From: Atopobium minutum
GTDB lineage: Bacteria > Actinomycetota > Coriobacteriia > Coriobacteriales > Atopobiaceae
DNA: 64,000 bases
Assembly: GCA_900105895.1 (NCBI GenBank)
Contig: FNSH01000001.1
Location: 868,001-932,000, forward strand
Direction of reading: 5' to 3'
Part shown: positions 1-15,758 of the stretch, in pieces
Numbering within the stretch: position 1 is the stretch's first letter
Layout of the letters: every line of letters begins with the position of its first letter
The notes under the pieces: model-generated
Told to the model about the DNA's origin: nothing
Databases searched by the model: none
The model's input: the letters and a program-made list of their open reading frames with translations, nothing else
Made by a program: the position numbers and the translations under genes

Positions 1-1376
1 AGTGTAACTAGTCTTTTGTTTTCAATTGGTTCCCCATATATATCAGTGGGAATACTTCCACCTTCATCCGATTGCAATGCACTAATAACATCTTCCACGG
101 TATCTTTTTCAAAGAATGGTAAAAATAAGTGTACATCATTTAAGGTATCGTCTACCTGCACATGCATTTGCATAGGTGTTCTTACCATACGTCCTAAAAG
201 CTGTGCAATATATGTTGCATCTTTAGCGTGCCTAAAGCTCATCATAGTTTCAGCTCTAGGGCAATCCCATCCAGTTGAAAGGTTTTCTTTGAAAAATACA
301 ACCTTAATTTTCTTATTATCTTGGATTCTGGATGGCTCTTCGTAAGGAACGGATAGGCCTGCTATGGTAATCGTTGAATCCGTATCTCCAAAAGTGTGGA
401 CAACTTCGCCTTCGGCAAATTTAATACCCGTACGCTCCTCTATCTTATGAAGACAGTCATCCAAATCTGTAGCAGATTTTTGAGAGGCACTACCGTTTTC
501 TACTTGAACTACAAAAATAGGGTTTATATACGCATAATGCTGCTCATAACAGTATTGTGACCAGTGATCCCACTTGTTTTTCCAATCATCAGCAGCTGCT
601 TGTAAAACGGCCATTGCTTTATTAACAGAGGATTCTTCAGAGTACGAAATAACAATACGATCTTTTAGAAGACCCGAAGCTCTAACTTCATCAGGAGATA
701 CAACAACTTTTTGTATGGTGGATGAAGTTTCCTCAACTAGTTTATTAAAGCGTTCTGATGTTGCTGACATGCCAATAACAACGGGCATAGGTACAAGATT
801 GTCATCTTCGCTACCTTTTATAAACTTTTGCATAATTGTTGTAGCTTTAGCAGCCGCTTTATCTTTCATTCCGCGATGTGCTTCGTCAATGATAAAGTAC
901 AGGCGATCAGATTTTTCATAAACGGTATTACCTAATGTTTCCCAAATGTTGTAGGTACGATTGTCTCCCGTTTTGGTAAGATTCTTATCCTTACCAATTT
1001 TTTGAGTGTTTAAGAAATAAATATGTCCGTCCTCTAAGAACTCTTTATCAAAGTTTTCATCAGTAATAGTGACACATTGACCAAGTCTTATTTTATCTGC
1101 TTTAGTGTCAATCTTTAATTTCGATTGTTCGTTAAGCTCAGGGGAATCAGATAACCAAACAAAGATTGCATCAGGCTGTTCAGGATAGCTTTCATCACCA
1201 AACAAAATGTTTTCAATAAACGCAGTCATAATAATTGTTTTACCTGCACCTGTTGGGGCAGTAAAAGAAATTACTTGCGGTGTATGTGTTCTTTGATATG
1301 CACCTAGTGCTTCTGCCGTTTTCATACGGAGATTCCTGAGTGCTATTTCCTGGAATGGGAATAATGATACTTTCAT
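1..1376 (-). CDS. res: Type III restriction enzyme, Res subunit (DEAD/DEAH helicase), cut by window edge
   Basis: The frame is open from an ATG at 1376 to the window edge (about 458 codons), so the C-terminal part is missing. Walker A APTGAGKT lies near residues 40-47, a DEAH box (DEAHRG) near residue 163, the SF2 motif SATS follows it, and a motif VI-like QLLGRMVRTP is near residue 405. This is the ATP-dependent translocase/restriction subunit of a type III R-M system, which works with the Mod subunit to cut DNA away from unmethylated sites. A GGAGG ribosome site overlaps the end of mod, whose stop is only 3 bases upstream, so the two are translationally coupled. The nuclease domain expected at the C-terminus cannot be seen here. 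I infer the family from the helicase motifs plus the adjacent mod gene. Confidence 0.9.
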   Translation of the reverse strand, partial: MKVSLFPFQEIALRNLRMKTAEALGAYQRTHTPQVISFTAPTGAGKTIIMTAFIENILFGDESYPEQPDAIFVWLSDSPELNEQSKLKIDTKADKIRLGQCVTITDENFDKEFLEDGHIYFLNTQKIGKDKNLTKTGDNRTYNIWETLGNTVYEKSDRLYFIIDEAHRGMKDKAAAKATTIMQKFIKGSEDDNLVPMPVVIGMSATSERFNKLVEETSSTIQKVVVSPDEVRASGLLKDRIVISYSEESSVNKAMAVLQAAADDWKNKWDHWSQYCYEQHYAYINPIFVVQVENGSASQKSATDLDDCLHKIEERTGIKFAEGEVVHTFGDTDSTITIAGLSVPYEEPSRIQDNKKIKVVFFKENLSTGWDCPRAETMMSFRHAKDATYIAQLLGRMVRTPMQMHVQVDDTLNDVHLFLPFFEKDTVEDVISALQSDEGGSIPTDIYGEPIENKRLVT

Positions 1377-1379
1377 GCT

Positions 1380-3435
1380 TTACCTCCCCGTATTAATACG
1401 AAAGTTATCCAAATAATCGCGGTATAGTTGATAGGATTTTTTGATTGAAAGATGAGAAATCATTTCACGATAACCGCTTGTAGAATCAGTGACGATAAAA
1501 ACTTGTTTTATTCTATCCTCATCATTAACTTTTGTCATAAACTCTGGGAAAGCATGCTCGTCAATCAGCACTGCAAAAGCGTTTTCTGGCAAAATCAGCA
1601 TAGAAGGCAACGATTCTTCTTCAATCTTAGGGCATAAGCCAACACAACCTGTTTTCATCCAAAGAACAGGCAAGAGTTCTTTGAACTGTCTACCAAGTGC
1701 AACAGCGTTCTTATCTAGGAAGCCAAGCTTGAAAAATGCAGCATTCGCTTTGAAACCATCTGCCATTGCTCGTTCACTATCAAGATACGTGCCTTTAAGT
1801 GGATTACCATTTATATCTTCGCCTTTAATTGAGCAAACAGTACGTGGCCATGTTACATAATGAGCAATACCAAGCCGTTCCCATTCTGGATCTCCAGGCT
1901 TGAAACCGTCTTTTTTGAGCTTTTTGGCTTCTTCATCTGAAACTTCATTATTGGTGACCATAATACAACGTCGGTGTCCGCCATCTTCAGCATTGAGTAG
2001 ATTTACAGCGTGAAGCGTTGTGCCAGAACCTGCAAAAAAGTCGAGGATGATGGCAGATTTATTTTCTTGTACAAAATAATTTAAACAGTCTTTTACTGCA
2101 TAGAGTGATTTAGGGAATGTAAATTTATCATCGATAAATTTACGCAATAAAACAGATCCATATTGTGATGCATCATGAGATGGATTATTCCATTGAGTTG
2201 ATGGTGTGATTTCTCTCCCTTCAGGGTAATGAGCAATGATACATCCTTGTTGATCTCTACCTTCAACAACAATTTTTCCATTATCGATATCACTAATAAC
2301 GCCACTAAGTAAATAAGAAAATGAGTATTTATTGTTTTTAATATTTACTTTAAAATATCCTTTTTCTAATAATGCGTTAGCTGATTCAGAAGACAAACGC
2401 CATATGCCTTCACTTTTATCTTTATTAAATGGTAGAACAGCAATACAATTATCTATTGTTGGTATTGATTCAATTCCTTCATCTTTATTTAAAGAACTCC
2501 CAATTTTTACAACTCTATGTGTAGTTTTATTTACATATATTGGATAAAACAAGTTTGGTCGTTGTGAACGTTTCCAGCTACTCCTATTAAAGCTTCTCCA
2601 TGGAATGTTTGCACTTCCTGCAACCTTGTCCTTGTGGATAGAGCTTTTTCCAAATCTTAAAAAATAAATAAATAAATTCATTGATTCTAGAAAATTCATC
2701 TTTCCTATTTGTTCCTCCATGATGAATTTCACTACTCACCATCTGCATTCTTGCATCAGGGAACAGTTCTTCCAACAGGCATCCCAAATGCAAATACTCT
2801 TTTTCATCAATTGTCACAATCAACACAGAGTCAGCTGGATTAAGTAGCTTTTTAGCCAGTTTCAGACGTTTTTCCATCATAGACAGCCATTTGCTATGAC
2901 GGTACGCATCGGAAGAATCCACATAATCGTTGTTATATTTCCAGTCCTTTGCTCCCGTGTTATAAGGTGGGTCGATATATATACAATCCACTTTACTGGC
3001 ATAAAGGTATTCTAAAAGCTGAAGTGCGTGGTAGTTGTCTGCTTCAATGAGCGTATGCCAAAGGCTGCTATCTGGTGCGTTTTCGATACTATCAATCGGC
3101 TTTAAGTAAGGGTAAATTGCCTCACCAAATTCGGCAATAGATACAAGAGAATCAAGGGAAAACTCTGTAGTCTCTTTGGTCTGAGTGTTCGCACAAGTTG
3201 CTTGATCATCGTTTATAGCCTTAACAACATATACGTCATTAATCTTTTTATCTTTAAGAGCTACTTTGCTGCCAACATGAACTGGAACATCATAGAGTGC
3301 GGTACATTCAGGCACGTGGTCTTCAAAAACCAGACCGAATTTTTTCTGCTTAGACAGCTTATCAACTTCAGCTTTAATGCGCTCTCGCAGCTCAAGATCA
3401 TCTATTTGATTGATTAAATCGTTAATTGCAGCCAT
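1380..3435 (-). pseudogene. mod: Type III modification methyltransferase Mod, frameshifted at an (AAAT)4 tract (phase OFF)
   Basis: Two overlapping frames together encode one type III (beta-class) N6-adenine methyltransferase. The 5' frame (ATG 3435) carries DPPYNTG, the catalytic motif IV. The 3' frame carries FAGSGTT, the AdoMet-binding motif I, in the order expected for beta-class enzymes. The frames part at a tetranucleotide tract at 2662-2677 (AAAT x4 on the plus strand). Deleting one unit gives NEFIYFLRFGKS across the junction and an uninterrupted 683-aa protein, a normal size for Mod. As written, translation ends near 2587, after motif IV but before motif I, so no active enzyme is made. 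Mod supplies DNA specificity for both modification and restriction, so both activities would be lost together. The start overlaps the upstream HTH gene by 14 bases. Phase variation is inferred; a fixed mutation or a sequencing error is possible. Confidence 0.85.
2662..2677. repeat. Tetranucleotide simple repeat (AAAT)4 inside mod
   Basis: Four perfect AAAT units, preceded by AAA at 2659-2661, lie exactly where the two mod reading frames separate. One unit fewer (or two more) restores the frame. Tetranucleotide tracts of this sort are the known switch element in phase-variable type III mod genes of other bacteria, although those tracts are usually longer. Confidence 0.85.
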
Positions 3436-3706
3436 TGTTATCCCTCACTTTTGCCTCATTGCTTTGAGCGAGGCTTTCTATACAATCTAATTTTACTTCT
3501 TCATGGTCTTTTTCGCTCTCATCATCGCAAGCACCACCTGATCTAATCCACTCATCGACTTCAGATAGCTTAAATTTCCATAATCTTCCAACCTTATAAG
3601 CAGGCATTTCTCGTTTGTTTATCCACTGTAGGATCGTTTCGCGTCCGACTCCTAAATAAGCTTGAACATCTTTTAGGTTTGTCCACTTTTCTATTTTGTT
3701 ATTCAT
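3422..3706 (-). CDS. Small helix-turn-helix (excisionase-family) DNA-binding protein
   Basis: This 94-aa protein has an N-terminal MerR/excisionase-like helix-turn-helix domain. The pattern LKDVQAYLGVGRETILQWI, followed by MPAYKVGRLWKF and a helix (LSEVDEWI), is typical of the excisionase-family DNA-binding fold. An acidic tail (DDESEKDHEE) follows. The gene lies 15 bases downstream of the NBR1-like gene and overlaps the start of mod by 14 bases, so it belongs to the type III R-M operon. It may regulate the operon, or mediate Mod/Res assembly or DNA binding. Excisionase function is less likely because no integrase is adjacent on this strand. No signal peptide or membrane segment is seen. Confidence 0.85.
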   Translation of the reverse strand: MNNKIEKWTNLKDVQAYLGVGRETILQWINKREMPAYKVGRLWKFKLSEVDEWIRSGGACDDESEKDHEEVKLDCIESLAQSNEAKVRDNNGCN

Positions 3707-3721
3707 TAAAAGCCTCCGTTG

Positions 3722-4534
3722 TTATGATGGAAAAGAAATTCTTAAGCGTATATCGAATATGTTTCTATTTGGAAAGCAGTTGTTACCATTGGAATCAACC
3801 ATTTCAAAACGACAACAAAAATCTCCTTCAGATCCTCGAGTCTCCATTTCTATCTCTCTTGTAAAATTTTGTTGTGGCTCAATATTCGGAATATTTATTT
3901 CACATTCTGTCCTTGGAATAGGGCAGGATGTTTTTTCTTTTATAAAAACTAATTTCCGGTTTAGCCACGTTACTGAACCAGTATTTTGAATATCGAATTT
4001 AACTTTTATTATCTCGTATGTGTTTGCTTCTATCCAATTTATATTTGAATAATCATTAACTGCATCACCAGGGTATAGAGGCATGTATTTACTAAAATCA
4101 GATTCCTCTTGATCATTGGCTATTCTTTGGTATTCATTCCACACAATATTTTCTACTTCGCTGCCATCGCTAGTAAAAATTAGCTCATATTGACGAGCAA
4201 TAGCTTGGGCTAAAAAGTCTTTATCGAGTTTTATCGAGCTTGGGAAACCAAAGGCTGAAGCTACGTCTTGAATTTTATCGTCTTGCATGTGGCTGGATAG
4301 AAATGTAGTAACTTCCTTAATAGGAAAAGGGCTGACAACAGAACGTTTCATATCAATAGTGAGGGGCCTAATTCCCTTAAAAATTTTTATTTCATAATCA
4401 CGCGGTGTTTGTGTGTTTTTAGGAAAAAACTTACTCCCCATGGCATTGAATAAGCTAGCTATAAAGACACCTTGATTATTGATTTTAGGTTTACAACTTT
4501 TCTGAACAGGTTCACTGCAGGATGAAAATTCCAT
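3722..4534 (-). CDS. Unknown protein with predicted C-terminal NBR1-like Ig domain, first gene of the R-M operon
   Basis: This 270-aa soluble protein has no signal peptide. Residues about 30-145 are helical and contain PRDYEIKIFKG, GFPSSIKLDKDFLAQAIARQ and a WNEYQRI segment. Residues about 160-265 look like a beta-sandwich of the NBR1-Ig-like type: a W(I)EA start, FDIQNTGSVTWLNRKLVF, a hydrophobic strand ending in PNIEPQQ, and a final strand with DSNGNNCFPNRN. I recognise the C-terminal pattern but not the N-terminal domain, and no catalytic motif is evident. It is the promoter-proximal gene of a four-gene cluster with HTH-mod-res, 15 bases upstream of the HTH gene. It could be an accessory or sensor component of a defence operon, or a bystander. 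Function is unknown. Confidence 0.75.
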   Translation of the reverse strand: MEFSSCSEPVQKSCKPKINNQGVFIASLFNAMGSKFFPKNTQTPRDYEIKIFKGIRPLTIDMKRSVVSPFPIKEVTTFLSSHMQDDKIQDVASAFGFPSSIKLDKDFLAQAIARQYELIFTSDGSEVENIVWNEYQRIANDQEESDFSKYMPLYPGDAVNDYSNINWIEANTYEIIKVKFDIQNTGSVTWLNRKLVFIKEKTSCPIPRTECEINIPNIEPQQNFTREIEMETRGSEGDFCCRFEMVDSNGNNCFPNRNIFDIRLRISFPS

Positions 4535-4555
4535 GCTAAAAATCCTCCACCTTAA

Positions 4556-4609
4556 AAGTCCATTTTTTGTCCAATAAGTCCATTTTGAACCGAGTGTAAG
4601 TCCAATTTT
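4556..4609. promoter_or_regulatory. Three direct repeats (AAGTCCA[A]TTTT), candidate operator or iterons
   Basis: AAGTCCATTTT occurs at 4556-4566 and 4576-4586, and AAGTCCAATTTT at 4598-4609. All are in the same orientation, with starts 20 and 22 bases apart (about two helical turns each). They sit just upstream of the minus-strand NBR1-like/HTH/R-M operon and ahead of the rightward small gene at 4775. Same-face direct repeats suggest cooperative binding by a regulator, perhaps the HTH protein encoded two genes downstream, or replication-initiator iterons of the neighbouring element. No protein assignment can be made from sequence. Confidence 0.5.
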
Positions 4610-4774
4610 TTCAGGTTATCTTCTAATCAAGCAGATAGAAAGAGGCAAAAAATGAGTGACTTATTAATAACTATTATAAGAACAAAACGTATGAAATTCA
4701 ACGAAAACATGCGTAAAAAGTTATTAACTCACTCAAATTCACTCTACTGCAAAACAGAAAGTGAGGTGATGAAA

Positions 4775-4912
4775 ATGCAAAAGAATACTAAGCAGACCTC
4801 GAAGCGAGTAGCTTCCAAGGCTAGCAAAGTGATGCGTGATGGACGCTATAGCAAGACATCTAAGTCTGTAGCTGGCAGTGCTCTCGCACAAACAAAGAAA
4901 AGTGGAAAGTAA
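4775..4912 (+). CDS. Small basic protein of integrative elements (45 aa)
   Basis: I chose the ATG at 4775 because GAGGTG at 4763-4768 sits 6 bases before it; the in-frame upstream ATGs lack a ribosome site. The protein is 45 aa and rich in Lys, Ser and Ala, with repeated SKxxxSKA / SKTSKSVAGSAL blocks and no hydrophobic segment. Small proteins with the core TSKSVAGSAL recur in Firmicute and Actinobacterial integrative elements, from memory of the family. The function is not known. It is the first rightward gene of the decayed element and precedes the structured region at 4942-5164. Confidence 0.7.
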   Translation: MQKNTKQTSKRVASKASKVMRDGRYSKTSKSVAGSALAQTKKSGK

Positions 4913-4941
4913 CCACTCTAAAAAATCTAAGTAATTGCAGA

Positions 4942-5164
4942 TCTGATTATTCAATCAGAATGCACCAGCCGAGGCATCAGCCTCAACCTCTATGCGGAAA
5001 TATCCCTTAGCTAAGGATTATTCGGAGTCCGCATAGAACAACTAAATAAGTACAGCGGTCTTACCGAATAAGGCAGCTGCAAGTCAAGATGAAGGAATTC
5101 TTCATTCTAGCTTGTGGTGTTTTGTCATGCCTTATTTGAGCTGAATTCAAGAAATTCCTTCATC
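4942..5164 (+). ncRNA. Candidate structured RNA / leader upstream of the 5188 gene
   Basis: This non-coding stretch contains a dense series of complementary segments. A 7-bp hairpin lies at 4942-4948/4953-4959 (loop ATTC), and a 5-bp stem GAGGC/GCCTC at 4971-4975/4980-4984. An 8-bp stem TATGCGGA/TCCGCATA at 4991-4998/5028-5035 encloses the palindrome CCTTAGCTAAGG. An 11-bp long-range helix with one G-U pair joins 5065-5075 and 5128-5138. A 12-bp perfect helix GATGAAGGAATT/AATTCCTTCATC joins 5088-5099 and 5153-5164. Segment 5088-5099 can instead fold locally on 5100-5108, and the two long-range helices interlock (pseudoknot order). The Shine-Dalgarno of the next gene begins at about 5173. It could be a cis-regulatory leader or a stand-alone RNA. 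I do not recognise a known family. Confidence 0.5.
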
Positions 5165-5187
5165 GGAAATCAGATGGAGGATTTTTT

Positions 5188-5817
5188 ATGAGAATTCAAT
5201 TACGTTGTGACAAGCATTTTACAACATTCGACCTCAAGCTTAATGAGGTTAAAGGCTGGCTTAATATCGACCTTCTTCCCGATGAAAGCGAAGAAGAGTT
5301 TGAGAAAAGAGCACAAGAAAAAGTAGATGCTGAGTTTAACCGTCCCGAGTATAACTCTCTGCATAAATATGAGAGACATAAAGGCTTTACTAGACCTTAC
5401 AGCGGTGAAGACGGTGAGGAAACTGATGATTATGAGTCTTGCATGAGTGATGTTAGAGACTCTGGCATCTTTTTCAAAACAGTAAATCAGATTAAAGCTT
5501 CAGAAGAATATAGGGCAGTTGAATCGTTTGTTTACTCGATTTTAAAGCCGGATGTGGCTGATCTTTTTATGGCTGTCCGTATTAGGAATATGGCGATTAA
5601 CGAAAAGGCTGCATCCATGCTTAGCCGTGATGCTTTTGAAACGGAGGCTGATTATAAAAAAGCCGTGGATCGCTTGGCTAACAACATTACACAGAAACTT
5701 AAGCGAGCTGAGAAAAAGTTAGTAAAGAATTTCAAAAAAGCGTCAGATTTTGGCATCCGCCGTGGCTACTTCATAGGAGGAACTAACTCCTCCAATAATT
5801 CGAAGGAGGTCATGTAG
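5188..5817 (+). CDS. Unknown mobile-element protein (209 aa)
   Basis: The ATG at 5188 is preceded by GATGGAGGA, a good ribosome site. The protein is soluble, charged and mostly helical. An acidic segment (residues about 29-45) is followed by a YERHKGFTRPYSGEDGEE region. The C-terminal half is helical and basic (NNITQKLKRAEKKLVKNFKKAS). No transmembrane segment or catalytic motif is recognised. It follows a structured leader and precedes small genes by a few bases, so it is probably the first gene of an element operon running to rha and beyond. The codon choice fits the neighbouring element genes. Confidence 0.75.
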   Translation: MRIQLRCDKHFTTFDLKLNEVKGWLNIDLLPDESEEEFEKRAQEKVDAEFNRPEYNSLHKYERHKGFTRPYSGEDGEETDDYESCMSDVRDSGIFFKTVNQIKASEEYRAVESFVYSILKPDVADLFMAVRIRNMAINEKAASMLSRDAFETEADYKKAVDRLANNITQKLKRAEKKLVKNFKKASDFGIRRGYFIGGTNSSNNSKEVM

Positions 5818-5964: not shown

Positions 5965-6613
5965 TTACGGCATTATGGCTGACAAGAACAACACCGCCAG
6001 AGTAGACAGCCGATTTATCGCACAGTTCTTTGAAAAAAGGCATTCTCATGTGATTCGTGATATCCAAGCAATAACTGAACCCAAATCTGGGCTCAGTGAA
6101 GAATTTACTGAACTCAACTTTGAGCTCAGTAGTTATAAGGATTCAACAGGCAGAAAGCTTCCGTGTTACTTGCTAACCAGAGATGGATTCACCATTTTAG
6201 CAATGGGCTATACAGGCCCTAAAGCAATGAAGTTCAAGGAACTCTATATTAAGCAGTTCAATAAGATGGAAGATTTCATAACAACCCTTGTGTCTGCAAG
6301 AGAGATGTTTCCGGTTCTTACAGAAAATATAAGTCTTGTTTATGACCACCCGAAAGCTTATCACTACAGCAATGAGTGCGACATGATCAACCGTCTTGTT
6401 TTAGGGATGCCCGCAAAACAAGTAAGAGAAACAAACGGCCTTGAGAAAGGGCAAAGCATACGTCCTTATCTCACATCAGGGCAAATGTATCTAATTGATC
6501 GTTTGCAGAAAATTGATGCAGGTCTTCTTATCTCAACACCAGATTTCCAAGCTAGAAAACGCCAGCTTGAATGGTATTTAACCAAGATAGATAAGGAGGC
6601 TAAAGATGAGTAA
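5939..6613 (+). CDS. Rha family phage regulatory protein
   Basis: This 224-aa protein starts at the ATG at 5939, 8 bases after GGGAGG (5925-5930); the GTG at 5930 overlaps that site and is unlikely. The N-terminal region matches the Rha domain: VDSRFIAQFFEKRHSHVIRD, then the ELNFELSSYKDSTGRKLPCY and LTRDGFTILAMGYTG signatures, ending in AMKFKELYIKQFN. The C-terminal half (residues about 115-224) is a separate helical region of the antirepressor/KilA-C kind. Rha proteins are temperate-phage regulators, also found in integrative elements. The stop overlaps the ATG of the DUF4406-type gene. Confidence 0.9.
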   Translation: MQAMIPMNNYGIMADKNNTARVDSRFIAQFFEKRHSHVIRDIQAITEPKSGLSEEFTELNFELSSYKDSTGRKLPCYLLTRDGFTILAMGYTGPKAMKFKELYIKQFNKMEDFITTLVSAREMFPVLTENISLVYDHPKAYHYSNECDMINRLVLGMPAKQVRETNGLEKGQSIRPYLTSGQMYLIDRLQKIDAGLLISTPDFQARKRQLEWYLTKIDKEAKDE

Positions 6614-6979
6614 GACTTATAAAAACATTTAGAAACAACACCGAATTTTAGGCCTATCGTCTACATTTGTGCTCCCTACCGTGGAGATAAAGAAAGAAAC
6701 GTGCAACATGCTATTCGGTGTGCGGCTTACGCGTATTCACGCGGAGCAATCCCTATCACTCCACACCTGCTTTTCCCGTTTATGGATGATGAGAATCAAA
6801 AGCATAGAGGGGATGCGATGTTTATGGACATTATCCTCTTAGGCAAGTGCAACGAGCTGTGGGTGTTCGGAGAAAAAATCACAGGCGGCATGCAAGTAGA
6901 AATCAATCTGGCAGAGAAACGTAGGCAGCCGATTAAGTATTTTACGGATAAGGATTTGGAGGTGAATGTTGATGCGTAG
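6606..6979 (+). pseudogene. DUF4406-family gene with a one-base insertion in a poly-A run
   Basis: The ATG at 6606 (ribosome site AAGGAGG upstream, ATGA overlap with rha) opens a frame that stops after 8 codons at 6630-6632. Removing one A from the A5 run at 6621-6625 joins it to the downstream frame to give MSKTYKKHLETTPNFRPIVY and then CAPYRGDKERN, a normal DUF4406 N-terminus. That frame continues to 6979 with HLLFPFMDDENQKHRGD and CNELWVFGEKITGGM, about 124 aa in total. DUF4406 proteins resemble nucleoside 2-deoxyribosyltransferases and are common in phages; no activity is proven. As written only a peptide, or an internal restart at about 6701, could be made. Confidence 0.75.
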
Positions 6980-7943
6980 TTTAGCTATCGCTTACGGTAA
7001 CAACAGGCAGGCAAAGACATGGGTTAATAAGACCATCACCTATGATGAGCTGAAAGACCGTCTTAAAGTGACGATTCGCACCTCAGAGTCAGCGGAAGAG
7101 TATGCAAAAATGAAAAAAGCAGACCGTGATCTTGCAAAAGACCACGGTGGTTTCGTTGCAGGATCGTTGGCTTATGGTAGACCTATCATCAGTCATGAAA
7201 TTTTTAATCTTGTGCATGAGCTGAGACAGAAGAGAAAATTAAAACTAAATATCACTAGCGGTAGTAATAAATACCTTGCTAGATATGTGTTTTCAGGGAA
7301 ACTTTACTGCGGTAATTGCCATAGTAGGTTAAAGAAACACGACCGGCATAAAAAAGATGGAGCCTATGTTGTTTGGTGTTGTACCAAGCATATACGTGAA
7401 ATTAAATGCTGCCCTATGAAAGCTGTAAAAGAGGAGTATGTTAAATTAGCTTTTCTTCAACTGCTTAACAAGCTCAAAGCAACATACGCTCAGATATTAA
7501 CGCCTTTCATAAAAAGCTTAAGAAACGTGAATAGTAAAGACGGTTTGAACAAGGTTATCGAACTTGAAGAAAAAAAGCTTAAGCTGCAAGAACAGGAGCA
7601 AGTACTCAGTAAGCTTCTAGCCGGTGGTTACATTGAGATGGATTCCTACTATCTGGAAAGCAATCAGCTTAAAACGGAAATGGATACTTGTCTTAAGGAA
7701 AAACTTCAGCTTTCTAACAGCTTAAACGGTAACTTAACGCACTTAAACGAGGCGCAAAAACTTCAACGGTTCGTAAGCGTCACAGAAGTATTTTGCGAGT
7801 TTAAGGACGAGGATTTTCTGGATTTTGTAGACGATGTCGTAGTTAAAAGCAGAACAGAATTTATTTTTCGTTTGAAATGCGGATTGGAATTAGAAGAAGA
7901 GGTGAAAGAAACATGGCACACATCCCATATGGTTACCGAATAG
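6972..7943 (+). CDS. Chimeric ORF: VirE/primase-type N-terminus fused to serine-recombinase C-terminus
   Basis: I chose the ATG at 6972 (GGAGG at 6958-6962). Residues 1-66 (RSLAIAYGNNRQAKTWVNK, TSESAEEYAKMKKADRD, DHGGFVAGSL) match the start of virulence-associated-E type proteins of phages and ICEs. From about residue 68 the sequence changes to the C-terminal part of a large serine recombinase: RPIISHEIFNLVHELRQKRK, then a zinc ribbon (CGNC, with later Cys pairs near WCC and KCC), then a long coiled coil. The catalytic domain and most of the recombinase domain are absent, as is the rest of VirE. The simplest reading is an in-frame deletion that removed everything between the two genes. The product could still be made but should be inactive as either enzyme. 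Confidence 0.8.
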   Translation: MRSLAIAYGNNRQAKTWVNKTITYDELKDRLKVTIRTSESAEEYAKMKKADRDLAKDHGGFVAGSLAYGRPIISHEIFNLVHELRQKRKLKLNITSGSNKYLARYVFSGKLYCGNCHSRLKKHDRHKKDGAYVVWCCTKHIREIKCCPMKAVKEEYVKLAFLQLLNKLKATYAQILTPFIKSLRNVNSKDGLNKVIELEEKKLKLQEQEQVLSKLLAGGYIEMDSYYLESNQLKTEMDTCLKEKLQLSNSLNGNLTHLNEAQKLQRFVSVTEVFCEFKDEDFLDFVDDVVVKSRTEFIFRLKCGLELEEEVKETWHTSHMVTE

Positions 7944-8323
7944 TAGACGGTAAAGCGGTTATAGATGAAAAAGAGGCTCAAAAAGTGAGAGAGCTTTTTC
8001 GTAAATTCTTAGAATTTGGAACGATTTCTGAAACGGCTCGAGCGGTGAACATTGATAAAACACATTCTGTAATTAGCAATATTTTGAAAAATAAAACGTA
8101 CTTAGGAACATCGCTTTACCCGAGTCTTTTAGATGAAGAAACTTTTTATAAAGTTCAGCAGTTAAGAGCCAACAATTTTAGAAAAAAACCTCGTACAACA
8201 GAGCTAAAACCTTTAATTACAACAGATTTCACGTACGAAATAGGCGTTATAGAAAAGAAATACGATGATCCTTATCGGCAAGCAGCATACGCGTACAGTC
8301 AAATCAAGGGAGGCGTAAAATGA
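7913..8323 (+). CDS. Short recombinase-domain protein lacking a catalytic domain
   Basis: The ATG at 7913 has GAAGAGGTGAAAG upstream and lies inside the end of the previous gene. The 136-aa product begins [19 protein letters not shown], the typical recombinase domain that follows the catalytic domain in large serine recombinases. It continues with [19 protein letters not shown] and [20 protein letters not shown]. No Ser-resolvase catalytic region is present. Such short middle ORFs occur in three-gene recombinase cassettes of Clostridia and Actinobacteria, where they are probably accessory. The stop overlaps the next start by 4 bases (ATGA). Confidence 0.85.
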
Positions 8324-9896
8324 GTGCCAACGTTACAATTATTCCACCAAGAAAAATAGCAGGGAATACGGTAGATAAGCATAAAGATAAGCCGAAGTTA
8401 AGAGTAGTAGCGTATTGTCGTGTCAGTACCGACAGTGAAGAACAGGCAACAAGTTATGACACGCAAGTTCAGCATTATACGGATTACATTTCAAGAAATC
8501 CTCTCTGGGAGTTTGCTGGCATCTACGCTGATGACGGTATTTCAGGAACCAACACGAAAAAACGTGTCGGTTTCAACGACATGATCCACGATTGCATGAG
8601 TGGCAAAGTAGACATGGTTATCACTAAGTCGATTAGCCGTTTTGCGAGAAACACTATCGACTGTTTAAAGTTTGTTAGACAGTTAAAAGACAAAAATATC
8701 CCGATCATTTTTGAAAAAGAAAACATCAACACCATGGAAGCAAGCGGAGAACTATTGCTTACTATCATGGCTTCTTTAGCTCAACAGGAATCCGCGTCGC
8801 TTTCTCAGAATGTGAAGCTTGGACTTAAGTTCCGCTACCAGGAAGGTAAAGTGCAAATCAACCATAACTGGTTTTTAGGATACACAAAAGACGATGAAGG
8901 GAATCTTGTAATTCTTGAAAAGGAAGCAAAAGTCGTAAGAAGGATTTATAGAGAATATTTAGAAGGAGCAAGTCTTAGAGATATAGCGGAGGGCCTTGAA
9001 AAAGACGGCATTAAAAACGGTGCCGGGCATTTAAAATGGCACTTGTCTAATATTAAAACCATCTTGCAAAACGAAAAATATATTGGTGATGCTCTTTTAC
9101 AAAAAACCATCACGACAGATTTTATCAACCATGTTCGTATAAAAAATGATGGAACAGAACCACAGTATTATGTAAAAGATAGCCACGCTTCGATTATTCC
9201 AAGAGATATTTTCTTTAAAGTTCAAGAAGAAATGGTAAGACGAGCCAACATGTTTAGCGGTGAGGAGAATAAAAAAGGAGAGTTTATTCCAGTAAGTACG
9301 CTTTATCCAGCCTATGTGTTTGTTCTAAATGCGGGGATGTTTACAGAAGAATTGCTTGGAACAATCGAGGAGTGCATTCTGTTGTTTGGCGTTGTTGTAC
9401 CAGATGGGAAAATGGTCCTAGTGCTTGTGATGCTCCGACAGTAAAAGAGGAAGAACTGCAGTCTGCTACAGTGAAAGCCATAAACAAGGTGTTTAGTATA
9501 CCGGATGAAGTATTGGATACGTTGAATAACAATATTAGAGAAATTATCGCGGGCAACAACTTAAGGGAGATTGAAACGGTTGATAAAAAAATCGCGGACA
9601 AACAAGCGATACTACTAACCTTGCTTAAAGCTAAAAAAGACTACACGAAAATAGCTGATGAGATTGATGAACTTAAAGTTAAGAAACAGCAGCTTCTTAT
9701 AGAAAAAGCAGGTCAAGAAGATGCTAAAAGACGAATCAGAGAAATGGAAGATTTTCTGAAAAATGAGCGTCACGATATTAGTGAATATGACGAGAAGCTG
9801 GTAAGAAAGTACATCAAGAAAATAAAAGTTTACGAGGACAAGTTCAGCGTAACTTTTAAATCAGAGATTAGTGTTGATGTTGAAAGGGCATCGTAA
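8320..9896 (+). pseudogene. Large serine recombinase, frameshifted at a poly-A run
   Basis: The first frame (8320-9444) has the catalytic Ser in [13 protein letters not shown], then [21 protein letters not shown], and a recombinase domain. At AAT AAA AAA GGA (A6 at 9271-9276) the reading frame is lost. Reading back one base gives [20 protein letters not shown] followed by GDVYRRIAW, the expected zinc-ribbon region, which continues in the 9372-9896 frame with a coiled coil and a KKIKVYEDKFSVTFKS end. The reconstructed protein is about 525 aa, normal for this family. It would be the integrase/excisionase of the element and closes a three-gene recombinase array. As written, the protein lacks the zinc ribbon and coiled coil. 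A -1 slip on the A run could still yield some full product, but a mutation or sequencing error is simpler. Confidence 0.85.
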
Positions 9897-9936
9897 AAGA
9901 TAAAAGAATGTGAGCATTTGAAATGTTACAAAAGTC

Positions 9937-9970
9937 AGCCTAGAGGGAATCCTATCTAGGCTGTTTTTTT
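9937..9970 (+). terminator. Rho-independent terminator after the recombinase
   Basis: A perfect 8-bp inverted repeat AGCCTAGA/TCTAGGCT at 9937-9944 and 9955-9962 (10-base loop) is followed by a run of T at 9964-9970. It lies 40 bases after the recombinase stop. Confidence 0.85.
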
Positions 9971-10242
9971 GTTTTTTATGCTCAAAAACCAAGTTATCAA
10001 GCCAATCTTAAACCTTTTAACGATAGCTTTTCCTATCGTTAAAAAGTGCACCCACTATCAATAGTGTGCACTCAAAAAAGTGTAGCTATACTTGGAGTTC
10101 TCTCAATCCATGTGGAAACGGTGGCGCTCTTAACCCGGGAAAAGAGCGCGTAACCGTTTTTGAAACATTATTTAATTATTGTAAGGCCTGAGGCATAGTC
10201 CTATACGCACTCTGCCTGCAAGGTTAATCCGCTCCTTAGGCA
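9971..10242. other. Gene-free element boundary with three inverted repeats
   Basis: No gene is seen here. It contains a perfect 12-bp inverted repeat TTTTAACGATAG/CTATCGTTAAAA (10015-10026/10033-10044), then an imperfect repeat around AGTGCAC...GTGCACT (10045-10073). A longer hairpin, AACGGT...CGCTCTT paired with AAGAGCG...ACCGTT (about 10117-10164), is followed on the plus strand by TTTTT. This last hairpin faces the 3' end of the leftward surface protease and may end transcription from both sides. The area separates mobile-element genes from surface-protein genes and is the most likely place for the right element end or attachment site. I cannot point to a matching left copy. Confidence 0.5.
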
Positions 10243-13200
10243 CTACTCCCCTACTTGCGTGCGCCGCCTACTAAGGCAAGAGACCCACAGAGCTCCACCC
10301 AACGCTGCTCCGGAAATCAACAGCAAGCCGCCAATGTTTGCTCCAGAATCCGACGTGTCAGGCAGAACACGTTTACGCTTGCTCTGTCCATGGCGAGAAG
10401 TACCTGCAGCTGTGGTGCCGGTCTGTCCATCAGATTGATCTTGCTGGCCAGAATTGTTAGAACCTCCTGGCTGGTTCGGATCTGAGGGGTTTGGATTTGC
10501 GGGGTCGTCGGTATTGTCGTTATTGTGTACTTCAGGATCCTTAATTGTCCTAGACGATGGTACGCCATAGTCGATATCGTTGGGATTAGGTGCTATCGCA
10601 GTAGTATCGGCGACCTCTGCTAGGGCAAGGGTACCCAAACGCGAAAGAGTATGTACGGCAGCTTGGTTCTCATTCAAATTGAGAGGAAGCACCGTCCAGG
10701 TCTGAGCAGCATAAGGCTTATACACAAGCAGCTTATTGTTCCAGCTTCCAGCTGCAGAAGCGCTTACTGCCAGTTCAAATGAACCTTCGGGATCAACCGG
10801 CTGACCACCTACGTCGGTCAGTTTCAAGTTGTAAGCTTGCAGCACGTTAGGCGCTCCCGGAAGGGCGGCAATTTGCGCAAGGTCATCATCTGCTAGATTG
10901 GTCTTTTCCACTTGGAATGTAGTTGCTGTACCAAGATTGATGGCCGAACCCGTCAGCTTAAAGGTATTGTCAGAAGAGCTCAGGGTTTTCTTTTGACTGT
11001 CAGCATCGCTTAGCTTGACAAATTTAGTTGGAGGATTGTTAGGGTCAGCCGGATCAGGCGTCAGATTACTACGCATTTCATCGCTAATCTGGCTCTCGTC
11101 GTAGTAACTCAACGTGGTTGCCGATGGGAAGGCATTGGGGCTAAGCCCACGGAACTTACCATTTGAACCTACCTCCGGCATGATGGTCTTATTCAAACGC
11201 ACTGTTTCGATGGGATTATCGCTAAAGGCCCCAAAACGTACCGTCTCAACCTTATCGGGCAAAATGACCGTCTTGATCTTGTTGCTTTCAAAAGCAGATC
11301 TGCCAATGTATTTGAGATTTGCAGGCAACTTGAGCTCCTCAATTTCGTTGGAGCTTTTGTAGTTACCGGCAAAAGCGTCGTTTCCGATCTCTTCGAGAGA
11401 GTCGGGAAGGTAGACCTCTTTGATTTTGTTGGCGTTAAATGCGCTTTCACCAATGGTTGTAAGGCCCTCAGGCAGGACAAGGCTTTCAAGCCCTGCCTTT
11501 TCAAAGGCATAAAGCCCAATGCCCTTTATATGCTTGGGAATGTCGATACTCTTAAGATTCTTGTTGTTTTGGAAGAGCTGACTGCTAATAAAGCTGTACT
11601 TGGGATTATTGGGAAGCTTAACGTGCTCAAGTTTCATGGCTGAACCGTAATTATCACCCTTAAACGCTCCGGTCTCTATGGTCTCTACACTGTCAGGAAT
11701 ATCAATGCTTGTCAGCTCTGAGCAGCTCTCAAAAGCACTCTGCCCGATATGCTTAAGCGAACCGGGAAGATTAAGTGAACTAAACCGTGCTTTTTTGAAA
11801 GCGCCACTATAGATGTACTCCAGTGTGGAGGGAAGCATAACTTCTTTGGCGCCAGACTTCTCAAAGGCATTCTCATGAATGCACGTAATACCCTCAGGTA
11901 TCTCGATCCGCTCAATTTCTCCGCCTTGCCAGGACGGAGCCTTGTAGACACCAGGACCGATCTGTGTAATTTTTACGCCACCGATAGTATCGGGAACGCT
12001 AATAACGCGCTCCTCCTTTGGCTGCTTTTCATAAACTTCCTGTACCTTGTGATAGGCAACAATCATGCCGCGAGAAGGGCTGATATCGTAGTCACCAATA
12101 GTCACGATATCTTTAGCCGCTTGGCCTTCCTCGATAAGAGGATCAGCGGTAGGCGTAGTTGAGATTGCCGTGTCAAAGGTGGGGTTTATAGGGTCTTGAT
12201 CGTGAACGTCTTGTCCAGTTGCAAAGTACGCTCTAATCATTGGCGCACCCGGATAACCGGCAGATGCCATACTGTTAAAGTCACCGTTATAGATAAAGCA
12301 CCGAGCATAAGCGGACGTATTTCTACTCACGCTCTTGTCCAGAGCCACAGCTGGGCTTGCTCCTGACGGCGAAACTTGCTTTACCACAACATATACGTCA
12401 CCCTGCATGGCAAGTTTAAGATCTCTAAAGTCAAAGCGATTCCAGGTACCGCTCTTGGCCTGCACAAGCTGTGGCTTCATGAGATCAATGAGTCGACCAA
12501 GTTTATTTACCTGTTTTACACTAATCTCAAACTGCCCGTCTTTTAAAATTGGGTTGTTGCCGGCAGCGTATACCATGACATGGTCAAGAACGCCGTCCTT
12601 GGGCGCGGTTACCTGAATAGCAGAACCTCTTCCTACAGTTTTATGCAGGATTGCTCCACCCAAAGGGTTGTTATTGTCGTAAGCAAAACCAACAGTACCA
12701 GCACCAGGCTCTGCGGTCGGACGATCTGCATTGGGATTTGGCTCATTGGATGGGTCATCTTTTTCCAGGTTGACTTCAAGCTCATTTGACTTTTTATCTA
12801 AAGAAACCGAAATTTCTTTGGACTTGTATCCCGGAGCTCCAACCAAAACGGTATAGGTACCTTGCTTGATCTTGCTAAAAACATAAGCACCATCGGGGCC
12901 GGTCTGTCCTTTCAGTCCAGCTGCTGCAATTTCAATATCGGCAACAAGAGGACCTTGATACGTATCCCCCGTGTCTGGAGCGGTACTGGTAAAGTCTCCA
13001 AAAGCTTCCTGACGAGAAAGACCCTGCTGCTGCGGGGCTTGTCCATCCAGCTCCAGATGAACATCGTCGATGTAAAAACCATTACCGGCAGTGTTTTGAT
13101 TGCTCATACTAAAGACAAAGGGATTAACAACCTTACCCTTATAGGACGTCAAATCGATCCTGCGTTCAACCCACGTACCACGCTCGGAAGACAGCTTAGT

Positions 13201-15441
13201 GGGATAGTTGAGCAGTGAGGCGGCTTGTCCTTCTTTGGGGTTAAGCTCTAACTGTACACCTGCCACTGCCTGATCCCAATCAAGATACTCATGCCAGACA
13301 AGCTCTATCTTGCTAGCCTGAACGGCTATGTCACCCTTCAGATCAAGCTGGGGGAGTTGGGCTGTCGAGGATGGTTCAATTCCCAAAGAATAGGAACCAA
13401 GTTTGAGTCCCATAAGGGCATTTCCACTGGTGGGTTTGGGATCGGTTTGAAGGTCTGCCGTACCAGCAGAAAAATCTCCCGTAAAAGCAAAGCCGTTTGC
13501 CCCGGATTCAAAATCAAAAGCGTATTCGTCAGGCGTCAGAGATTCCCTCACTCTATATTCAATAGGAGTGGATACATGCTCCGTCCCTGTCGTATCTACC
13601 ACTATCAGCTGGGCAATGTACTCTCCCACCTCAAGTGTGGATTCAGGAATTGTTACGTCATAGACACTCTTGTCATTAAAGCGAGAAGTGCCCTCAAACT
13701 CTTGAGCTTTTGTGCTGTCCTCAAGAGAACTTACACGAAGGAGCACCTTTGCCACCTTTGTGGCATCTTTAATGCTCGTACTCAGCTGATAAGGACGATC
13801 TTTCAGAATTTCTTTTGCCATAGAGGCCTGTATATCAGTGTCCGCGTTGAGCTGCAGTGGTTCACTCGATCCGTTTACCTTAACTTTCAGCGACGCCAAA
13901 TCTGCACCGGTAGCGCTCGTGTCATCTTGATTCATCTTGCCTAATGCCATGGAAACAGCATTGTATGCATCAATCTGTCCATATCCATATGCCATATTGG
14001 GGCTACTAGGATAGGAACTATCAGTTTTTATTTGAGCGCTCTCGCGCAAGATGGCCTCTACCTCATCAAGGCTGAGATCAGGATTTGCAGACCAAACCAG
14101 CGCTGCAACACCAGCGACATGAGGAGCTGCCATAGAAGTTCCATCCCAGCTGGCGTAGCCACCACCATAAACCGAACTGCGAACCCCAACACCAGGGGCA
14201 ACCACATCCGGTTTGATAAGAGACGCGTTGTTTGCAACAGGGCCACGTCGAGAGAAACTGGCAACACTACCAGAAAGATCACAAGCTCCAACGGTAAAAA
14301 TATCGGACAATCCTGAAGGGTTATCCAAGGAGCCGCTCGGCGCAAGTTCCGATCCGTTGTTCCCAGAAGACATAACGTTCAGGATGCCTACCGCACGCAT
14401 CTGCCGAGCCATATCATCAAACCAAGGATCGATTTTATTTGATCCGTCAGACCAACTGTGATTGACGATTTTTGGCGCCTTTGCTGGGTCTCCGCCCGGA
14501 GCCATCATCCACTGACAGGCCTTAATAATATTCTCATTGCTCGCTCCCACACCATCTCTAAAGGCGCTGGCAACAATAAAGTTGGCACCCGGAGCCACAC
14601 CGATACGGTTGTAGTCAAAGCTTGAGCCAGCAGGCCCACGCGTTTCGGAACCAAGAATAATTCCGGTTACATGCGTACCATGGTCGGAAGGGTAAGGGCT
14701 GCTGACAAGATCCAGGTAGTTGCCCTCGGTGACAGCCGTTCCCGTGGCGGAATCGTAGCCCCTGAACTTGGTCTTAAGAGCGGGGTGGTCAATGTCAACT
14801 TTTTGATCAACAACACCTACTGTTACACCGCTACCATCAATATTGAGTTCGCTCCACACCTTATCTGCCCTGATGAGCTTGAGGTTTTCTTCTACCTCTC
14901 TGGGATCTGCAGGTGCGGACCTAAAAGATCCAAAAAGCAGGGGCTTCTCGACAGGATCCTGTATGATTGTCCCGTCCTTGGATAGACTCTTATATTCCGG
15001 TAGCTGCTTTATTTTCTCTAGAAGATCTTGGGGAGCACTGATCACAAGGATATTGCCCGCCCAGTATGCGTGATACTCGATTGAAGTGTTATGTTCAGCC
15101 TTATACGAGGCGATAAGGTCAAGCGTTGATTTTTGGCTAAGATACGCCTGCGCCTGTATAAGGGCGAGCGTTTTTACGGCTTGCGTGGGTGTTTGTGCAG
15201 GCTTTTTAATAGCTTCAAGTCCATTGGTGTAGAGCTTTTCAATAAAATCTTGGTCACCCGCTAAACCGTTAGCGATAATCTGCTCCGTTAAGGCATCAAC
15301 ATCTGAACCTTGTGCCGGATTATAGCTAATGATTGCTTTTTCAACCTGTCCCTCCTCTCCTGGTGTCGCAAAGGCTTTGATTGGCGCTAAGCCGATGCAT
15401 AATACCAGCGCCAGAAGAAGGCGCGACAGAAGCTTGCGCAT
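10243..15441 (-). CDS. Cell-wall-anchored subtilisin-like (S8) protease with BspA-type leucine-rich repeats
   Basis: I start at the ATG at 15441 (GGAG 5 bases upstream), giving 1732 aa with a clear signal peptide (RKLLSRLLLALVLCIGLAP, ending near AFA). The S8 catalytic triad is visible: Asp near 212 (VGVVDQ), His near 254 (DHGTH) and Ser near 436 (GTSMAAPHVAG). A carboxypeptidase-regulatory-like beta domain follows (GQTGPDGAYVFSKIKQGTY), and then, roughly from residues 1130 to 1440, leucine-rich repeats of the LRR_5/BspA type (IPxxVxxIxxxAFxxN). The C-terminus has LPDTSDSG at about 1693, a hydrophobic helix and RRR, a sortase signal with Ser/Asp after the Thr. It is probably a secreted, wall-attached protease and adhesin. 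It is a single gene with its own upstream region. Confidence 0.93.
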   Translation of the reverse strand: MRKLLSRLLLALVLCIGLAPIKAFATPGEEGQVEKAIISYNPAQGSDVDALTEQIIANGLAGDQDFIEKLYTNGLEAIKKPAQTPTQAVKTLALIQAQAYLSQKSTLDLIASYKAEHNTSIEYHAYWAGNILVISAPQDLLEKIKQLPEYKSLSKDGTIIQDPVEKPLLFGSFRSAPADPREVEENLKLIRADKVWSELNIDGSGVTVGVVDQKVDIDHPALKTKFRGYDSATGTAVTEGNYLDLVSSPYPSDHGTHVTGIILGSETRGPAGSSFDYNRIGVAPGANFIVASAFRDGVGASNENIIKACQWMMAPGGDPAKAPKIVNHSWSDGSNKIDPWFDDMARQMRAVGILNVMSSGNNGSELAPSGSLDNPSGLSDIFTVGACDLSGSVASFSRRGPVANNASLIKPDVVAPGVGVRSSVYGGGYASWDGTSMAAPHVAGVAALVWSANPDLSLDEVEAILRESAQIKTDSSYPSSPNMAYGYGQIDAYNAVSMALGKMNQDDTSATGADLASLKVKVNGSSEPLQLNADTDIQASMAKEILKDRPYQLSTSIKDATKVAKVLLRVSSLEDSTKAQEFEGTSRFNDKSVYDVTIPESTLEVGEYIAQLIVVDTTGTEHVSTPIEYRVRESLTPDEYAFDFESGANGFAFTGDFSAGTADLQTDPKPTSGNALMGLKLGSYSLGIEPSSTAQLPQLDLKGDIAVQASKIELVWHEYLDWDQAVAGVQLELNPKEGQAASLLNYPTKLSSERGTWVERRIDLTSYKGKVVNPFVFSMSNQNTAGNGFYIDDVHLELDGQAPQQQGLSRQEAFGDFTSTAPDTGDTYQGPLVADIEIAAAGLKGQTGPDGAYVFSKIKQGTYTVLVGAPGYKSKEISVSLDKKSNELEVNLEKDDPSNEPNPNADRPTAEPGAGTVGFAYDNNNPLGGAILHKTVGRGSAIQVTAPKDGVLDHVMVYAAGNNPILKDGQFEISVKQVNKLGRLIDLMKPQLVQAKSGTWNRFDFRDLKLAMQGDVYVVVKQVSPSGASPAVALDKSVSRNTSAYARCFIYNGDFNSMASAGYPGAPMIRAYFATGQDVHDQDPINPTFDTAISTTPTADPLIEEGQAAKDIVTIGDYDISPSRGMIVAYHKVQEVYEKQPKEERVISVPDTIGGVKITQIGPGVYKAPSWQGGEIERIEIPEGITCIHENAFEKSGAKEVMLPSTLEYIYSGAFKKARFSSLNLPGSLKHIGQSAFESCSELTSIDIPDSVETIETGAFKGDNYGSAMKLEHVKLPNNPKYSFISSQLFQNNKNLKSIDIPKHIKGIGLYAFEKAGLESLVLPEGLTTIGESAFNANKIKEVYLPDSLEEIGNDAFAGNYKSSNEIEELKLPANLKYIGRSAFESNKIKTVILPDKVETVRFGAFSDNPIETVRLNKTIMPEVGSNGKFRGLSPNAFPSATTLSYYDESQISDEMRSNLTPDPADPNNPPTKFVKLSDADSQKKTLSSSDNTFKLTGSAINLGTATTFQVEKTNLADDDLAQIAALPGAPNVLQAYNLKLTDVGGQPVDPEGSFELAVSASAAGSWNNKLLVYKPYAAQTWTVLPLNLNENQAAVHTLSRLGTLALAEVADTTAIAPNPNDIDYGVPSSRTIKDPEVHNNDNTDDPANPNPSDPNQPGGSNNSGQQDQSDGQTGTTAAGTSRHGQSKRKRVLPDTSDSGANIGGLLLISGAALGGALWVSCLSRRRTQVGE

Positions 15442-15661
15442 ATGCACTCCATTCCGGTCAGGGGCGATAAACCCTTGACTCAAAAATAGTTATATGAGGT
15501 TAACTTATAAAGTGTATAGGCTGAATATGTATAAGTCAAGAACGTAAAACCCTGATGTAAAACCCTATTTCGTAAGCCTTTTATGCCTGCCAAAACATAC
15601 GCTATGCAGCGTATACAACAAAATGGGGTTATAACTACAAACCCTGTCTGGGCAAAAACAA
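15442..15661. other. Upstream region of the surface protease
   Basis: This gene-free promoter region of the leftward protease gene contains a tandem direct repeat GTAAAACCCT (15544-15553 and 15557-15566, approximate) and an inverted repeat ATACGCT/AGCGTAT (15597-15603/15607-15613). AT-rich stretches near 15490-15535 could hold the promoter. No additional ORF with a ribosome site is seen. Confidence 0.4.
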
Positions 15662-15706
15662 ACCTCCCATTCTTGAGCTTTACTTTCAGTCCAAGAAATG
15701 GGAGGT
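15652..15706 (-). terminator. Rho-independent terminator after the L,D-transpeptidase gene
   Basis: An inverted repeat, ACCTCCCATT.CTTG at 15662-15675 paired with CAAG.AATGGGAGGT at 15692-15706, is followed on the minus strand by TTTGTTTTTG. It lies about 50 bases beyond the stop of the leftward gene at 15759. Confidence 0.85.
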
Positions 15707-15758
15707 GAATCGAATCATTTAAAATGTTTTACACAGTATAGTGCTGTGTTACAAAGGT

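What the first reader, a model, noticed from the sequence alone, without database searches (positions are those of the whole stretch)
2662..2677. Type III mod gene split exactly at an (AAAT)4 tract, restored by losing one unit
The two halves of mod are in different frames and the break coincides with four AAAT units. One unit less joins the frames into a complete 683-aa beta-class methyltransferase with the expected NEFIYFLRFGKS junction. This is the signature of a phase-variable methyltransferase in the OFF state. It would switch both modification and restriction, and possibly a methylation-dependent regulon. I am not aware of this tract type described for this group.
Basis: partly seen in the sequence, partly recalled or inferred. 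Interest (0 to 1): 0.82.

Follow-up and report, generated by a model that had tools for sequence, protein, structure and literature searches.

The report
Methyltransferase gene broken by repeat slip
A bacterial DNA-methylation gene beside other phage-defence genes is out of frame by one extra copy of a four-letter repeat; the break looks real and could revert, but nothing yet shows that cells flip it on and off.

Summary
On the minus strand the type III mod gene (3435-1380) is split into 282-aa and 450-aa ORFs, and the frame changes at (AAAT)4, 2662-2677. It is the only (AAAT)4 in the 1.78-Mb genome and the only tetranucleotide tract of four or more units in 482 kb examined. Of 41 homologues with an alignable block, 30 have its glycine at one exact spacing and none one residue later. 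That fits three units in frame and argues against a one-base error. A same-genus locus, 96% identical without gaps outside the TRD, has an intact 700-aa Mod and no tract.

No second copy of this allele was found, so variation is untested. The tract is short, absent from the 49 homologues scanned, and its three-unit form follows from AT-rich codons for E-F-I-Y-F in a conserved block. I favour a recent one-unit slip that turned off a constrained R-M system and is revertible at low rate. An evolved switch stays possible: a four-unit pentanucleotide in H. influenzae hsdM reportedly switches fast (PMC2651432, passage). The R-M genes adjoin Hachiman.

The parts
2662..2677 (-). (AAAT)4 tract (ATTT on the coding strand); the mod reading frame breaks here
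2587..3435 (-). mod, N-terminal ORF (282 aa; catalytic DPPY motif; up to 26 residues after NEFIY are out of the family's frame)
   Evidence: PF01555; MTase_III model PDLC03645 positions 1-271
1380..2732 (-). mod, C-terminal ORF (TRD plus FAGSGTT SAM-binding motif); residues before the tract are not the homologous frame
   Evidence: (PDLC03645 positions 300-708)
2055..2729 (-). target-recognition segment that differs as a block from the same-genus locus G010 (31% G+C against about 40% either side); the tract lies near its 5' end
1..1376 (-). res (type III restriction subunit), 5' part; continues beyond the window as one open frame of 971 aa
   Evidence: (ResIII)
3422..3706 (-). excisionase-type HTH gene overlapping the mod start
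   Evidence: TIGR01764; MAD1 model below its cut-off
3722..4534 (-). 270-aa gene of unknown role, upstream in the same-strand cluster; shared with G010
6966..9896 (+). serine recombinase genes or pieces; one (8320-9444 / 9372-9896) is frame-broken; not part of the stretch shared with G010

Best explanation
A slipped-strand event added one ATTT unit to a short three-unit tract that arises from AT-rich codons for the peptide E-F-I-Y-F at the start of the target-recognition domain. This put mod out of frame, so no full methyltransferase is made. Res alone should then be inactive, because type III Res recognises DNA through Mod (established knowledge of EcoP1I/EcoP15I, recalled). The R-M system is therefore off in this genome. 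The event is probably recent, since the rest of mod and all of res remain open. Loss of one unit, or replacement of the TRD by recombination, would turn it on again, probably at low rate. Shown: the frame break, the extra unit relative to family spacing, the open remainder, the TRD block difference. Inferred: slippage as cause, recency, loss of methylation, rate of reversion.
For: Frame break at the tract. The spacing of three units occurs in 30 of 41 alignable homologues; the other 11 lack the glycine there and none has it one residue later. No tetranucleotide tract of three or more units in the 49 homologues scanned, and codon usage alone gives a three-unit tract with probability 0.33. The genome is poor in SSRs: in 482 kb six tetranucleotide tracts of three or more units including this one, two pentanucleotide and one hexanucleotide tract of three units. 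The G010 locus is 95.9-96.0% identical over 6323 + 2199 bp with no gaps, and its Mod is 700 aa. dN/dS of the pair: mod N 0.07, mod C 0.11, res 0.12.
Against: No read-level or second-strain evidence that the fourth unit is real, fixed or recent. A four-unit tract in just this segment is unlikely by composition, which an evolved switch would explain better than accident. dN/dS cannot be assigned to this lineage, and the neighbouring HTH and 270-aa genes have higher values (0.23 and 0.38, on 2 and 18 changes).
Confidence: 0.6

Rival explanations
1. Evolved phase-variable switch: the tract gains and loses units at high frequency, so clones alternate between R-M on (three units) and off (four), perhaps with a methylation-dependent regulon.
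For: Exact one-unit frame logic. Only (AAAT)4 in the genome. PMC2651432 (passage) reports, citing Zaleski et al. 2005, that a (GACGA)4 tract in H. influenzae hsdM changes from four to three units at rates equal to those of much longer tetranucleotide tracts. SSRs are reported in 17.4% of type III mod genes in REBASE (PMC7394358, passage).
Against: Only four units; no second copy of the allele, so no variation seen; absent from the 49 homologues scanned; no other long SSRs in 482 kb. Six units would add four residues to a conserved block; in S. suis modS the pentanucleotide tract lies near the gene start, with 17-21 units in the cultures studied (PMC8125046, passages).
Confidence: 0.22
2. Assembly or sequencing error: the true genome has three units, or one T fewer, and mod is intact.
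For: AT-rich SSR with an adjoining T6 run; another frame break lies nearby in a recombinase (8320-9896).
Against: No gaps in 8522 aligned bases against the separate genome G010; no obvious split among the long ORFs of the neighbouring 18 kb, by eye. A one-T error would give a spacing seen in no homologue.
Confidence: 0.08
3. Ordinary decay: mod is a permanent pseudogene in an element that is losing function.
For: One nearby recombinase is frame-broken: in the eight listed plasmid records the match stops at residue 319, and the rest is in another frame.
Against: No further lesion in mod or res and low dN/dS; HamA and HamB match their models over nearly the full length.
Confidence: 0.08
4. The split is functional: the two halves are made separately (internal start codons with GGAGG/AGGA-like sites before the tract) and assemble, or a ribosomal frameshift at the U-rich site yields full Mod.
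For: GGAGG and AGGA precede in-frame ATGs just upstream of the tract; catalytic and SAM-binding motifs fall on separate ORFs.
Against: The alignable homologues read through this place; the nearest case, L026/L072, breaks about 90 bases after it. RNA fold near the site is not striking, z -1.64, 9 of 200 shuffles as stable. A +1 shift would be needed and I see no usual +1 signal (inspection).
Confidence: 0.02

Closest known systems
SSR-controlled type III mod genes; details seen for modS of S. suis
   Same: Type III mod with conserved ends, differing central TRD and a repeat whose unit is not a multiple of three (PMC8125046, passages)
   Different: Four units at the start of the TRD rather than 17-21 pentanucleotide units near the gene start; variation not shown here
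H. influenzae type I hsdM with (GACGA)4
   Same: Four-unit repeat in an R-M methyltransferase gene; loss of one unit changes the frame
   Different: Type I not III, pentanucleotide not tetranucleotide; rates were measured there (PMC2651432, passages; the primary paper was not seen)
Same-genus locus in G010 (L013)
   Same: Same order of 270-aa gene, mod, res, hamA and part of hamB; 96% identity outside the TRD
   Different: Other TRD, intact 700-aa Mod, no tract, other genes on its right side
Mbo45V (7dsu), Mod of 6k0w and EcoP15I Mod (4zcf), solved structures
   Same: Beta-class type III Mod relatives by sequence
   Different: Distant: E 7e-28, 8e-25 and 3e-17, searched with the G010 Mod, not with the window's halves

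Membership tests
Type III restriction-modification system | Beta-class Mod with DPPY and FxGxG motifs and central TRD | tested here: met
   Both motifs, on separate ORFs; PADLOC MTase_III E 1e-68 and 8e-79; intact Mod in G010
Type III restriction-modification system | Adjacent Res with helicase domain | tested here: met
   ResIII 8e-16 on the 5' part; one open frame of 971 aa, the length of the G010 gene
Phase-variable mod gene (contingency locus) | SSR in the reading frame, unit not a multiple of three | tested here: met
   (AAAT)4 at 2662-2677
Phase-variable mod gene (contingency locus) | Unit change joins the two frames into a family-like protein | tested here: met
   Three units give the spacing of 30 of 41 alignable homologues
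Phase-variable mod gene (contingency locus) | Tract length varies between strains or within a clone | not testable with these tools
   No second copy of this allele in viral contigs, genome contigs or 395 genomes of the order; no reads
Phase-variable mod gene (contingency locus) | Tract kept across alleles or relatives | tested here: not met
   0 of 49 homologues have a tetranucleotide tract of three or more units in the stretch scanned; the G010 allele lacks it
Phasevarion | Methylome and expression change with tract length | not testable with these tools
   Needs long-read methylation and expression data

The most novel reading that the evidence does not exclude
The four-unit tract is a working low-copy switch, and because mod lies just upstream of res, hamA and hamB on the same strand (gaps of 3, 34 and 13 bases) the off state, with 1.2 kb of poorly translated message, also lowers Hachiman by polarity. 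One slip would then bet-hedge a whole defence cluster.
Probability: 0.06. Interest if true: 0.65.

Novelty: new member of a known kind. Interest (0 to 1): 0.3.

Why it matters
If unit number varies in real populations, this adds an SSR-switched type III system with an intact res and shows that a tract born of codon bias in a conserved block can become a switch. If it does not vary, it is a clean example of how an R-M system is lost by one slip in a freshly different TRD.

Tried and rejected
One-T (homopolymer) error: unlikely as the cause, because the result would have a spacing seen in none of the 41 alignable homologues. Programmed frameshift or split enzyme: no family support, RNA fold z -1.64. 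Tract as a feature of the family: rejected. Searches for another copy of the TRD allele found none: viral contigs by protein (5 stretches matched a pattern, none a relative) and by an exact 25-base pattern (0), order-level genomes (11 of 395 match including the own genome, best other identity 37%), genome contigs (five loci, 29-38%); phages and plasmids gave more distant relatives only. Att repeats at the presumed island edges: one 12-base match, not convincing. The right flank (9500-16500) has almost no match in G010 or G040, so the right border stays undefined. Direct-repeat search in L013: nothing informative. Promoter-like sites in 1-5200: 9 found, shuffles 16.8 on average; terminator-like: 8 found, shuffles 3.1, none on the minus strand between mod and res. 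The Atack 2018 survey (PMC5909438) and Ryan and Lo 1999 (PMC148345) are not held, so their criteria were not seen. The 30 further loci (N-part search, 93 of 395 genomes matched, most of them distantly) were not added to the SSR scan; only L072 was inspected.

Full report
1. Observation. The minus strand carries a gene cluster (270-aa gene, HTH gene, mod, res, then hamA and hamB outside the window) with a type III mod whose frame is broken: ORF 3435-2587 (282 aa) holds the catalytic DPPY, ORF 2732-1380 (450 aa) the TRD and FAGSGTT. The two overlap, and the homologous frame passes from one to the other inside (AAAT)4 at 2662-2677. Matches to one PADLOC MTase_III model run through positions 1-271 on the first ORF and 300-708 on the second. 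With one unit less the gene would be 683 aa by arithmetic; 24 of 49 homologues read 685-710 aa.

2. Which length is the normal one? Homologues came from own-order genomes, genome contigs and viral contigs. Of 65 loci held at that time I dropped 12 duplicates of the same places, two partial hits that ended before residue 220 of the query, and two without a usable match; 49 were left. Some of the 49 are near-identical pairs, and for a few the reading started inside the gene or ended at a frame break, so the scan is not complete for them. The loci of the later one search were not added. Forty-one hold an E[YF] block found by a simple pattern; eight do not. In 30 of the 41 a glycine follows at one exact distance, in none one residue later; the other 11 have no glycine at either place. 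Three units reproduce the spacing (NEFIYFLRFG). Loss of one T from the T6 run would restore the frame too but give one residue more. The break is therefore best read as one tetranucleotide gained.

3. Is the tract special? It is the only (AAAT)4 in the 1.78-Mb genome on either strand. In 482 kb examined there are six tetranucleotide tracts of three or more units and one of four, this one; there is no G/C run of 8 or more and no A/T run of 9 or more. Four units are unlikely in a segment of this composition (5 of 20,000 simulations), though one such tract somewhere in the genome is not. Three units are unremarkable: with the TRD's codon usage the peptide E-F-I-Y-F yields (ATTT)3 with probability 0.33. 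None of the 49 homologues has a tetranucleotide tract of three or more units in the stretch scanned; four with the peptide N-E-F-I-Y-F use ATA for Ile and have no tract. So the tract is private to this allele, as far as searched, and needs no selection to explain its three-unit form.

4. Context. A same-genus genome (G010) has the same cluster, 96.0% and 95.9% identical over 6323 and 2199 bp without a gap, interrupted between window positions 2054 and 2730, where the TRD differs. The differing segment has 31% G+C against about 40% on either side. Its Mod is intact, 700 aa, without the tract. The shared stretch runs from hamB to window position 4928; the recombinases further right are not matched in the 20 kb of G010 examined. 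The gene left of the cluster matches at 77-79% in the two other genomes of the genus, which suggests recent transfer of the cluster between lineages. Nei-Gojobori dN/dS between the two is 0.07 for the mod N part, 0.11 for the mod C part, 0.12 for res, 0.13 for hamA, 0.23 for the HTH gene and 0.38 for the 270-aa gene, the last two on few changes: mod and res have been under constraint, but the values cannot be assigned to one lineage. Res is one open frame of 971 aa. Downstream lie HamA (E 2e-135) and HamB (E 0), the Hachiman pair. Gaps mod-res-hamA-hamB are 3, 34 and 13 bases, and res has a GGGGAGG ribosome site, so Res could still be made when mod is off.

5. Mechanism. Best supported: a slip added one unit, mod is off, Res is idle, methylation is lost, and loss of a unit or a new TRD would restore it. 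The frame break, extra unit and open remainder are shown; slippage, recency and rate are inferred. An evolved switch is the main rival. For it: PMC2651432 (passages and two short sections seen) says, citing another paper, that (GACGA)4 in H. influenzae hsdM changes from four to three units at rates equal to those of much longer tetranucleotide tracts; it sets its tetranucleotide threshold at three units in its methods and Table 2 (four in Table 3). PMC7394358 (passage) gives 17.4% of type III mod genes in REBASE with SSRs. Against it: no variation seen, no conservation, and a place where only one length gives a protein of normal spacing. In modS the tract is near the gene start, with 17-21 units in the cultures studied (PMC8125046, passages).

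6. What could not be tested. The claim that this tract type is new for the group could only be touched in an open-access library: no paper held all of Coriobacteri*, phase variation, DNA methyltransferase and repeat, none held phase-variable, type III, mod gene and Actinobacteria, and one unrelated paper on Neisseria gonorrhoeae held the Atopobium terms.

7. Verdict. It is a new candidate of a known kind, of modest interest unless length variation is shown.

Noticed in passing
L012:12841-16426 (own genome, just left of the window): Hachiman pair HamA (306 aa) and HamB (883 aa) directly downstream of res on the same strand; most of this stretch is shared with G010 at 96% identity.
   Followed up: partly
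window 8320-9896: A serine recombinase gene is frame-broken: the eight listed plasmid homologues match up to residue 319 only and the rest lies in another frame. The element may no longer move by itself.
   Followed up: partly
window 2054-2730: Clean block difference in the mod TRD against G010, with no gaps in 8.5 kb around it.
   Followed up: yes
L072/L026 (genome G178, same order): Another type III mod homologue is frame-broken; the break seems to lie at an A6 run about 90 bases after its DEYAVF block, and its reading frame also holds a G9 run near codon 86.
   Followed up: partly
window 3422-3706: Excisionase-type HTH protein overlapping the mod start; matches the MAD1 model of the methylation-associated defence system below its cut-off (65 against 80 bits).
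   Followed up: no
window 6610-6979: The ORF at 6701-6979 may lack its normal start: plausible coding residues continue upstream without a start codon (by inspection only).
   Followed up: no
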